DNA from: an uncultured Sphingomonadaceae bacterium
GTDB lineage: Bacteria > Pseudomonadota > Alphaproteobacteria > Sphingomonadales > Sphingomonadaceae
Assembly (NCBI GenBank): GCA_947501325.1
Contig: CANMVC010000004.1
Coordinates: forward strand, 130,001-169,556
Reading direction: 5' to 3'
Length of the DNA: 39,556 nucleotides
The notes under the pieces were generated by a model, which ran no database searches, was not told where the DNA came from, and worked only from the letters and a program-made list of their open reading frames with translations. The position numbers were made by a program, and so were the translations under genes. Of this stretch, positions 12,187-18,989 are shown in pieces (position 1 is the stretch's first letter; the number at the start of each line of letters is the position of its first letter).

Positions 12187-12217
12187 GTCATTCCTGCGAA
12201 AGCAGGAATCCATTTCC
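12187..12217. repeat. Hairpin repeat copy 1 (flanks GIY-YIG gene)
   Basis: The core ATTCCTGC-GAAA-GCAGGAAT at 12190-12209 is a perfect 8-base stem with a GAAA loop. Including flanks, it matches copy 2 at 12696-12726 in inverted orientation over 31 bases with only two differences, which are paired positions of the stem. In the coding sense it reads as VIPAKAGI, the signature of a repeat family dispersed in many proteobacteria and similar to the dRS3 repeats of Neisseria. It lies 33 bases upstream of the CMD-like gene start. Confidence 0.85.
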
Positions 12218-12274
12218 GGGTAGGAAACTAAAAGCCAGCTCTAGAAAAAGGATACACAATCAATTCGGATAGGC

Positions 12275-12613
12275 TCAGTCTTTCCTTGTTATCTGCGGTG
12301 GCAATGGATCAAAACCGAGACCGATCGCTAGATCCTGCCAGTCCGGATTGTCCTTCTCAATCAGTTCGATGCGCCAAGGTCGTTTCCAATTTTTAATCCG
12401 TTTCTCGCGCAATATGGCCGCATCCATATCGTCATGTAATTCAAACCACATCAGGCGTTTGATGCTATATTTTTTGCTGTGACCCTCAACCAATCCTTCG
12501 CGGTGTTCATATATCCGTCTTAGCAGGTTTGAGGTCACGCCTGTATAAAGCCGCCCCTGTTTCTGACTCGCAAGAATATAAACGACCGGAGCAAATTCGC
12601 GTTGCATGGACAC
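12275..12613 (-). CDS. GIY-YIG nuclease domain protein (UPF0213-like)
   Basis: A 112-residue single-domain protein. VYI at residues 11-13 stands for GIY and YTG at 23-25 for YIG. Then come R33, Y35 and H37 (LLRRIYEHREG), the KKYSIKRLMWFE strand, and the metal-binding Glu E70 within ILREKRIKNWKR. All elements of a GIY-YIG nuclease are thus present, with only the YIG Ile replaced by Thr. Stand-alone genes of this kind are frequent in bacteria and their biological role is unclear. The gene sits between two inverted copies of a hairpin repeat (12187-12217 and 12696-12726), with no other gene in that 540-base block, and shares its strand with the genes on either side. Confidence 0.85.
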   Translation of the reverse strand: MSMQREFAPVVYILASQKQGRLYTGVTSNLLRRIYEHREGLVEGHSKKYSIKRLMWFELHDDMDAAILREKRIKNWKRPWRIELIEKDNPDWQDLAIGLGFDPLPPQITRKD

Positions 12614-12695
12614 TCATTAATTTCGTTAGCGGCTATCGTCACGCGCGACCGAATCCGCCGCCTATTTTTCACGCGACCCTCAAAATATATGATCA

Positions 12696-12726
12696 GGAAA
12701 TGGATTCCCGCTTTCGCGGGAATGAC
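12696..12726. repeat. Hairpin repeat copy 2, just after acnA stop
   Basis: On the minus strand the core is ATTCCCGC-GAAA-GCGGGAAT, a perfect 8-base stem with GAAA loop, inverted relative to copy 1. It differs at two stem positions (C for T and G for A) that keep the base pairing. It begins 4 bases downstream of the acnA stop codon, so it may act as a 3' RNA hairpin for acnA mRNA. Confidence 0.85.
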
Positions 12727-15408: not shown

Positions 15409-15630
15409 ATTAAAGTCCCTTATTTTAATCTGTGCTTTTGCCGGTTTGGGGAAAGCGGCCAACAAGGCGCAAACCAGCAGATGAATCGATGTTCGAGAGG
15501 GCTTTAGCGCAGGGGGTGCCGGGGTGCAATGGGAAGGCGTCCACAGATCATCCACTACTCGTTCTTGCAAATGCAAAAAATTGATAAAGTAATTCTTTTG
15601 TTTTTTACAAAGGTAATCTAATCGATAATT

Positions 15631-16752
15631 ATGTCTTCATGGTCTTTTCTAGAGTTTTTTGCTGGAGGCGGGTTCGCTCGGCTGGGACTGGGCGACAATT
15701 GGAAATGCTTACTTGCCAACGATTGGGACCCAAAAAAGGCGGCCACTTATAAAGAAAACTGGGGCAACAGCGACCTACATTGCGAAGACGTTGCGAATCT
15801 CCAAACAAATCTAATTTCAGAAAAAACTGACCTCGCTTGGGCTTCCTTCCCCTGCCAAGATGTCTCTCTTGCAGGTGCCGGCGCGGGTTTGCTTGGAGAT
15901 CGGTCTGGAACATTTTGGCCTTTTTGGAAATTTGTAACCGCTTTAGCTTCAGAAGATCGGGCACCATCCATTGTCGTAATCGAAAACGTCTGCGGTATGA
16001 TTACCTCGAAACGTGGCAAAGATTTTGATGCGATTTGCAACGCGCTCGTCCAAGAAGGATATCGAGTAGGAGCGATTGTTGTCGATGCCGCTCTATTTGT
16101 GCCTCAGTCGCGAAAGCGCGTTTTTATTATCGGCGTCAAAGATCATATCAAGATTCCGTCGCATTTAATATCACCGACCCCCAAATACTTTCAGTCTGAC
16201 TCAATCCAACGAGCGGTCGCTGAGAGGCTCACCATTGACCCACAAAAATGGATAAATTGGAATCCATCGCCTCCTGACGTCAAGGTTGAAAACCTCCAAA
16301 GCATTTTGGACACTAATACAACAGTAGCTTGGGACTCACCGGAACAGACATGTCATTTGCTAAAGCTTATGAGTCCAACGACATTGCTAAAACTTCGTCA
16401 TGTTAGGAAAAGCGAAAAGTCCACAGTTGGTACCGTTTACAGAAGGATGAGAAAAAATAAATCCGGACAGAAGGTGCAGCGCGCTGAAGTGAGGTTTGAT
16501 GGAATAGCCGGATGCCTTCGAGCACCTACCGGAGGATCAAGCAAGCAAACGCTCATCTTTGTAGAAGGTAATAATATAAGGACGCGCCGACTGTCTGGAC
16601 AAGAAGCTGTCAGATTAATGGGTGTGCCTGACTCATACAAAATCTCAAAAAGACAAAACGACGCCTATAAACTGGCTGGAGAGGGAGTAGCTGTCCCAGT
16701 AGTTCGATATTTGTCACAATCAATTTTCGAGCCAATACTTGACGCTAACTGA
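15631..16752 (+). CDS. DNA (cytosine-5-)-methyltransferase
   Basis: The 373-residue enzyme transfers a methyl group from S-adenosylmethionine to C5 of cytosine in a specific sequence. Motifs are in standard order: I (FFAGGGFARLGL, residues 9-20), IV with catalytic Cys (FPCQD, C75), VI (ENV, 118-120), VIII (QSRKR, 159-163), then a variable target-recognition region (about 175-300), IX (RRLSGQEAVRLMGVPDSY) and X (AYKLAGEGVAVPVV). The recognition sequence cannot be predicted. The gene is A+T rich unlike its flanks, and lies only 18 bases before the Z1 gene, which suggests that methylation protects host DNA from whatever the Z1 protein does or recruits. No restriction nuclease is seen nearby. Confidence 0.92.
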   Translation: MSSWSFLEFFAGGGFARLGLGDNWKCLLANDWDPKKAATYKENWGNSDLHCEDVANLQTNLISEKTDLAWASFPCQDVSLAGAGAGLLGDRSGTFWPFWKFVTALASEDRAPSIVVIENVCGMITSKRGKDFDAICNALVQEGYRVGAIVVDAALFVPQSRKRVFIIGVKDHIKIPSHLISPTPKYFQSDSIQRAVAERLTIDPQKWINWNPSPPDVKVENLQSILDTNTTVAWDSPEQTCHLLKLMSPTTLLKLRHVRKSEKSTVGTVYRRMRKNKSGQKVQRAEVRFDGIAGCLRAPTGGSSKQTLIFVEGNNIRTRRLSGQEAVRLMGVPDSYKISKRQNDAYKLAGEGVAVPVVRYLSQSIFEPILDAN

Positions 16753-16770
16753 ATATACTGGGGGCCAAAT

Positions 16771-18906
16771 ATGACTTCGGGATTTTACGATAGATTACGC
16801 GCGAAACGCAAAGACGATGTTGCCCTCGCGGGGTGTATAAAAAATGTAGTCGACAAGCTCGGAGAAGTTGAAACTGATAGTGATAAACCAGGCATGTTGC
16901 TGGGCAAAATTCAGTCTGGAAAGACTAGGGGTTTTGTAGGGTCCATAGCGCTTGCATTCGACTCTGGATACGACGTTGCGATTGTCCTTACAAAAGGCAC
17001 AAAAACTTTGTCGGCACAAACTGTTTCAAGATTAGAAACTGACTTTGCTGAATTTATTGAAAACGATGAAATGATCGTGTTGGATATTATGCATCTGCCT
17101 GGGAAGTTGGCGGGTAGCGAACTTTCTCGGAAAATAGTCATCGTCGCCAAGAAGCAATCGCACAATTTGGATTATCTAGTCTCAATGTTCGAAGACTATG
17201 ATGTCCTGCTGTCTAAGAAGGTGTTGTTAATCGATGACGAAGCCGATTTGGCTAGCATTCGTTTTGTTAAGAACCGTGAAGCCGATGTTATTGAGCAAGG
17301 CAAAATTGCCGAAAAAATGGATGCATTTAGGGATAAGATTGATGATGTCTCTTTTTTACAGGTAACAGCTACCCCTTACTCGCTTTATCTGCAGCCAGAA
17401 GATTACGAAGATGGCAATGAGGACTTTGTTTTCAAGCCAAAGAAACCCGCATTTACAGAACTCTTGCCTATCCATGGGGGATATGTGGGTGGCGACGATT
17501 ACTTTGGCGAGTTTGATGAAACTGACCCTCGGTTTTATCTATATTCTGAAGTTTTCTCGAACGAGTTAGATACTCTAAGAGAGAAAGACCTCAGACGAGT
17601 AAAAAAAGAGAAAGTTCTCTCGTCAGACAACACAAAGGCTCTGAGAACATCCATTGTGAATTTTATCTTGGCAGTTTGTTTGAGGCGGGCACAGCAACAA
17701 AAATTGGAATTGAAACTTAGAAAATATTCGATGGTTATCCACATCGATACAAAAAAAGCAGCGCACAAATGGCAGGATGAACTGATCCAATGGATTTTTG
17801 ACCGCATAAAGAAACAAGCCCAGCAGTCGCCAGATCAACTGAAATCGATTTTCGATGACGCTTACAATGACTTGAAGCGATCGGTTACAGCGCATGGGGA
17901 CTGGATGCCCACGCGAAAGAACCTGTTCAAAAGTTTTCTGGGAGCCTTTTTAAATGATGACATCGTATGGGAACGGGTCAACTCCGATAACGATGTTCTG
18001 GCTTTGCTTGATCAGGACGCCGAACTAAAATTAAGGACTCCATTTAATATCTTCGTGGGCGGCAATATTCTTGATCGTGGAATTACCATCCCAAATTTGA
18101 TATCATTTTACTACGGCCGAAATCCGAAAACTATGCAAGCGGACACCGTGCTGCAACACTCTCGGATGTATGGCAATAGAGACAGAAGTGATCTTGCCGT
18201 TACTCGCTTTTATACATCCCAAAGTGTTTATGATCGCCTATACACCATCAACCAATTCGAGAATGCTTTAAGAAGCGCATTTGAGACGGGAGCGCATGAT
18301 GCAGGCGTTGTTTTCATTCAGCAGAATGCCAACCAACAAATAAGGCCATGTGCTCCAAATAAGTTGCTACTGAGCAAAGTAAATGCGGTGAGACCTAGTG
18401 GACTGTTGCTGCCAACCGGCTTTCAAACAGTTGTGAAACCAAAGCTTTCAAAACTGGTCAAAAGCATCGACGATATACTTGACCTCGATGCAAGAGTACC
18501 GGAGCAGTTTCACGAAATGTCGCTCAATGATGCCAAATCTATTGTTAATTTGATAGCGAAGTCATGTAAATTCGAAGGTCCAAAGTTTGAATGGGATGCT
18601 ATGAAGGGACTGATCGACTATTTTGATCAGGCATCAGAATCGAATGACGGGCAGGTTTTGGTCATTTCAAGCCTAAATAGGTCTCTCGATCGCTTAAAAT
18701 CAGGTGACAAGTCGGGCAGATCAATTCTCGGTACAGCATTAAGATCACGGATGGCGCAAGAGCATACCGATCGAACAAAATTGGCTCTACTGCGTCAAAC
18801 GGGAACAAAAGCCTTGAACTGGAACGGTGGCCCGTTTTGGTGGCCAGTACTATGCGCACCAGATAGCATTGAGCCTTGTGTTTTCGCCTCTAAAACGATC
18901 GGATAA
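16771..18906 (+). CDS. Z1-type superfamily 2 helicase-like ATPase, probable defence effector
   Basis: A 711-residue protein starting at ATG 16771 after a GGGGG site. It has a P-loop (GKIQSGKTRG, residues 45-54), a Walker B/DEAD-like box (DDEAD, 155-159), motif III (VTATP, 198-202), and the Z1 signature GGNILDRGITIPNL (430-443) followed by LQHSRMYGNRDR (461-472, the Q-x-x-R of motif VI). The rest has no domain I can name; residues 680-700 contain GGPFWWPVL and a few conserved-looking hydrophobics. Z1 proteins are known in bacterial antiphage loci such as MZA (MutL, Z1, a PD-(D/E)xK protein, AIPR), where they accompany a cytosine methyltransferase. Here no nuclease, MutL or AIPR gene is present; whether 711 residues include a nuclease is not visible to me. 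Confidence 0.8.
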   Translation: MTSGFYDRLRAKRKDDVALAGCIKNVVDKLGEVETDSDKPGMLLGKIQSGKTRGFVGSIALAFDSGYDVAIVLTKGTKTLSAQTVSRLETDFAEFIENDEMIVLDIMHLPGKLAGSELSRKIVIVAKKQSHNLDYLVSMFEDYDVLLSKKVLLIDDEADLASIRFVKNREADVIEQGKIAEKMDAFRDKIDDVSFLQVTATPYSLYLQPEDYEDGNEDFVFKPKKPAFTELLPIHGGYVGGDDYFGEFDETDPRFYLYSEVFSNELDTLREKDLRRVKKEKVLSSDNTKALRTSIVNFILAVCLRRAQQQKLELKLRKYSMVIHIDTKKAAHKWQDELIQWIFDRIKKQAQQSPDQLKSIFDDAYNDLKRSVTAHGDWMPTRKNLFKSFLGAFLNDDIVWERVNSDNDVLALLDQDAELKLRTPFNIFVGGNILDRGITIPNLISFYYGRNPKTMQADTVLQHSRMYGNRDRSDLAVTRFYTSQSVYDRLYTINQFENALRSAFETGAHDAGVVFIQQNANQQIRPCAPNKLLLSKVNAVRPSGLLLPTGFQTVVKPKLSKLVKSIDDILDLDARVPEQFHEMSLNDAKSIVNLIAKSCKFEGPKFEWDAMKGLIDYFDQASESNDGQVLVISSLNRSLDRLKSGDKSGRSILGTALRSRMAQEHTDRTKLALLRQTGTKALNWNGGPFWWPVLCAPDSIEPCVFASKTIG

Positions 18907-18989
18907 GAAACCCCCTTTCCTACAACCCCCAGTCTTTGATACACCGGCCCGAATCAAAGGAACAAAAGCAGAACGAAAGGGCCGCAGCC

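What the first reader, a model, noticed from the sequence alone, without database searches (positions are those of the whole stretch)
15577..18935. Two-gene Dcm-Z1 island: a candidate minimal antiphage module
Seen: an A+T-rich island with only a complete C5-cytosine methyltransferase (all motifs) and a complete 711-residue Z1 ATPase (P-loop, DDEAD, TATP, Q-x-x-R), 18 bases apart and co-oriented, between acnA and an HTH gene. Known: Z1 proteins occur in defence loci such as MZA with MutL-like, PD-(D/E)xK and AIPR partners. Inference: here all those partners are missing, so either the Z1 protein carries its own unrecognised nuclease or it acts with host nucleases, or the island is a remnant. A methylase plus ATPase without nuclease would be an unusual restriction-like arrangement.
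Basis: partly seen in the sequence, partly recalled or inferred. Interest (0 to 1): 0.78.

Follow-up and report, generated by a model that had tools for sequence, protein, structure and literature searches.

The report
A chromosome slot that holds different defence-type genes in related bacteria here holds only a DNA-marking enzyme and an ATP-driven DNA motor, without the DNA-cutting enzyme that such motors usually accompany, so it is either a cutter-less defence unit or one that lost its cutter.

The parts
15529..18912 (.). Slot between acnA (minus strand, upstream side) and the HTH-type gene, filled by the two-gene cassette
   Evidence: Edges from alignment with 9 congeners; other cassettes in the same slot
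15631..16752 (+). C5-cytosine DNA methyltransferase, 373 aa
   Evidence: (PADLOC DruM2/DruM profile 470 bits, MTase_II 334 bits)
16771..18906 (+). [not shown]
   Evidence: model of mean pLDDT 83.8 matching SF2 motors
18301..18903 (+). C-terminal region of the ATPase (residues 511-711), aligned with the C-terminus of the NgoAVII ATPase subunit

Best explanation
[not shown]
Confidence: 0.45

Rival explanations
1. Remnant: a restriction-modification locus that lost its nuclease. The methylase persists because it is harmless or protects against related restriction systems; the motor is a passenger.
Confidence: 0.28
2. Nuclease in trans: the pair works with a nuclease encoded elsewhere in the genome or with general host nucleases.
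For: CglI-type motors act with a separate nuclease (PMC4267653). A GIY-YIG gene lies 3 kb away at 12275-12613, though it belongs to a different, repeat-flanked unit.
Against: Own-genome searches gave no match for Vsr (control rang), c285 (the query rings in 2 of 4 relatives' genomes), DUF4928, the GIY-YIG c5 protein or a PLD R protein (the last three without a positive control). Eco29kI-type and unknown nucleases were not searched.
Confidence: 0.2
3. [not shown]
For: The region is conserved (65 of 201 columns in the close family), with four acidic columns at 90% or more there: D519, E607, D646, E701. The structure search tested mainly residues 3-515, so the fold of this part is not settled.
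Confidence: 0.07

Closest known systems
CglI (Corynebacterium glutamicum) and NgoAVII restriction systems, PMC4267653 and PMC5737866
   Different: They have a third gene, a PLD-B3 nuclease that recognises the site; here it is missing. The methylases are only about 25% identical.
[not shown]
   Different: 25 of 28 have a nuclease; the window has none
[not shown]
   Same: SF2 helicase with a DThhQXuRhFG motif, here DTVLQHSRMYG, beside a cytosine methylase
   Different: Those neighbourhoods contain nucleases and/or GHKL ATPases; here neither
MZA
   Different: MzaC score far below its cut-off; no other gene in the slot
BREX (recalled, from no call)
   Same: Idea of methylation-marked self with ATPase-dependent blocking rather than dedicated cutting
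   Different: Many genes, unrelated proteins; an analogy of working only

Membership tests
[not shown]
   68.9 bits against 1500; PADLOC MzaC 50.6 bits
   The slot holds only the two genes
[not shown]
CglI/NgoAVII-type restriction system | Adjacent C5-cytosine methylase | tested here: met
CglI/NgoAVII-type restriction system | PLD-B3 nuclease subunit | tested here: not met
   None in the slot; no match to a Mucilaginibacter PLD R protein in the genome, without positive control
CglI/NgoAVII-type restriction system | ATP-dependent site-specific DNA cleavage | not testable with these tools
   Needs purified proteins
Type II R-M of the methylase + c285/DUF4928/GIY-YIG kind | Methylase of the same family | tested here: met
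   51% to L004, up to 53% to L006
Type II R-M of the methylase + c285/DUF4928/GIY-YIG kind | Linked nuclease | tested here: not met
   No tblastn match in the window to c285, DUF4928, GIY-YIG c5, Eco29kI or Vsr baits
Druantia | DruM-type methylase | tested here: inconclusive
   PDLC00028 at 470 bits, but the profile also fits ordinary R-M methylases
Druantia | Other core genes such as DruE (recalled) | not tested
   None in the slot; the genome was not searched for them

The most novel reading that the evidence does not exclude
Probability: 0.35. Interest if true: 0.8.

Novelty: new variant of a known kind. Interest (0 to 1): 0.52.

Why it matters
If the pair protects, the ATP-driven motor of a restriction enzyme can defend without its nuclease, which bears on what that motor does in CglI-type enzymes and on how much of restriction is cutting. 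The unit is two genes and 3.4 kb, so it is easy to test. The acnA-HTH slot is also a compact place to look for further small defence cassettes in this genus.

Full report

Own genome. No match to Vsr (control rings in 5 of 14 named genomes), DUF4928 (no control rang), c285 (the query rings in 2 of 4 relatives' genomes), the GIY-YIG c5 protein or a PLD R protein, the last two without control. Eco29kI types were not searched.

Judgement. A nuclease-less variant of a known kind: 0.45 functional unit, 0.28 remnant, 0.20 nuclease in trans, 0.07 built-in nuclease. The mechanism proposed, methylation-based self-marking plus an ATP-driven blocker, is inference; BREX is recalled as an analogy only.

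Noticed in passing
15529-18912, and L094-L102: The acnA/HTH-gene slot holds a different AT-rich cassette in each of 9 congeners read, 8 with PADLOC matches: a candidate defence-exchange hotspot without tRNA or obvious integrase.
   Followed up: partly
L095:1740-4975: In one congener the slot holds a cytosine methylase (421 aa) plus a GHKL/MORC-like ATPase (654 aa) and nothing else recognised: a second methylase-plus-ATPase pair.
   Followed up: partly
12187-12726: A GIY-YIG gene (12275-12613, minus) flanked by 31-nt inverted repeats (94% complementary); in congener L101 the sequence on either side lies 28 nt apart, so it looks like a small mobile unit.
   Followed up: partly
[not shown]
   Followed up: no
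[not shown]
   Followed up: no
[not shown]
   Followed up: no
L003:13566-14417 and A4: c285, a 285-aa protein overlapping the methylase gene by 4 bp in many loci, has no Pfam match in the row tested and a PD-(D/E)xK-like motif: probably an unnamed restriction nuclease family.
   Followed up: partly
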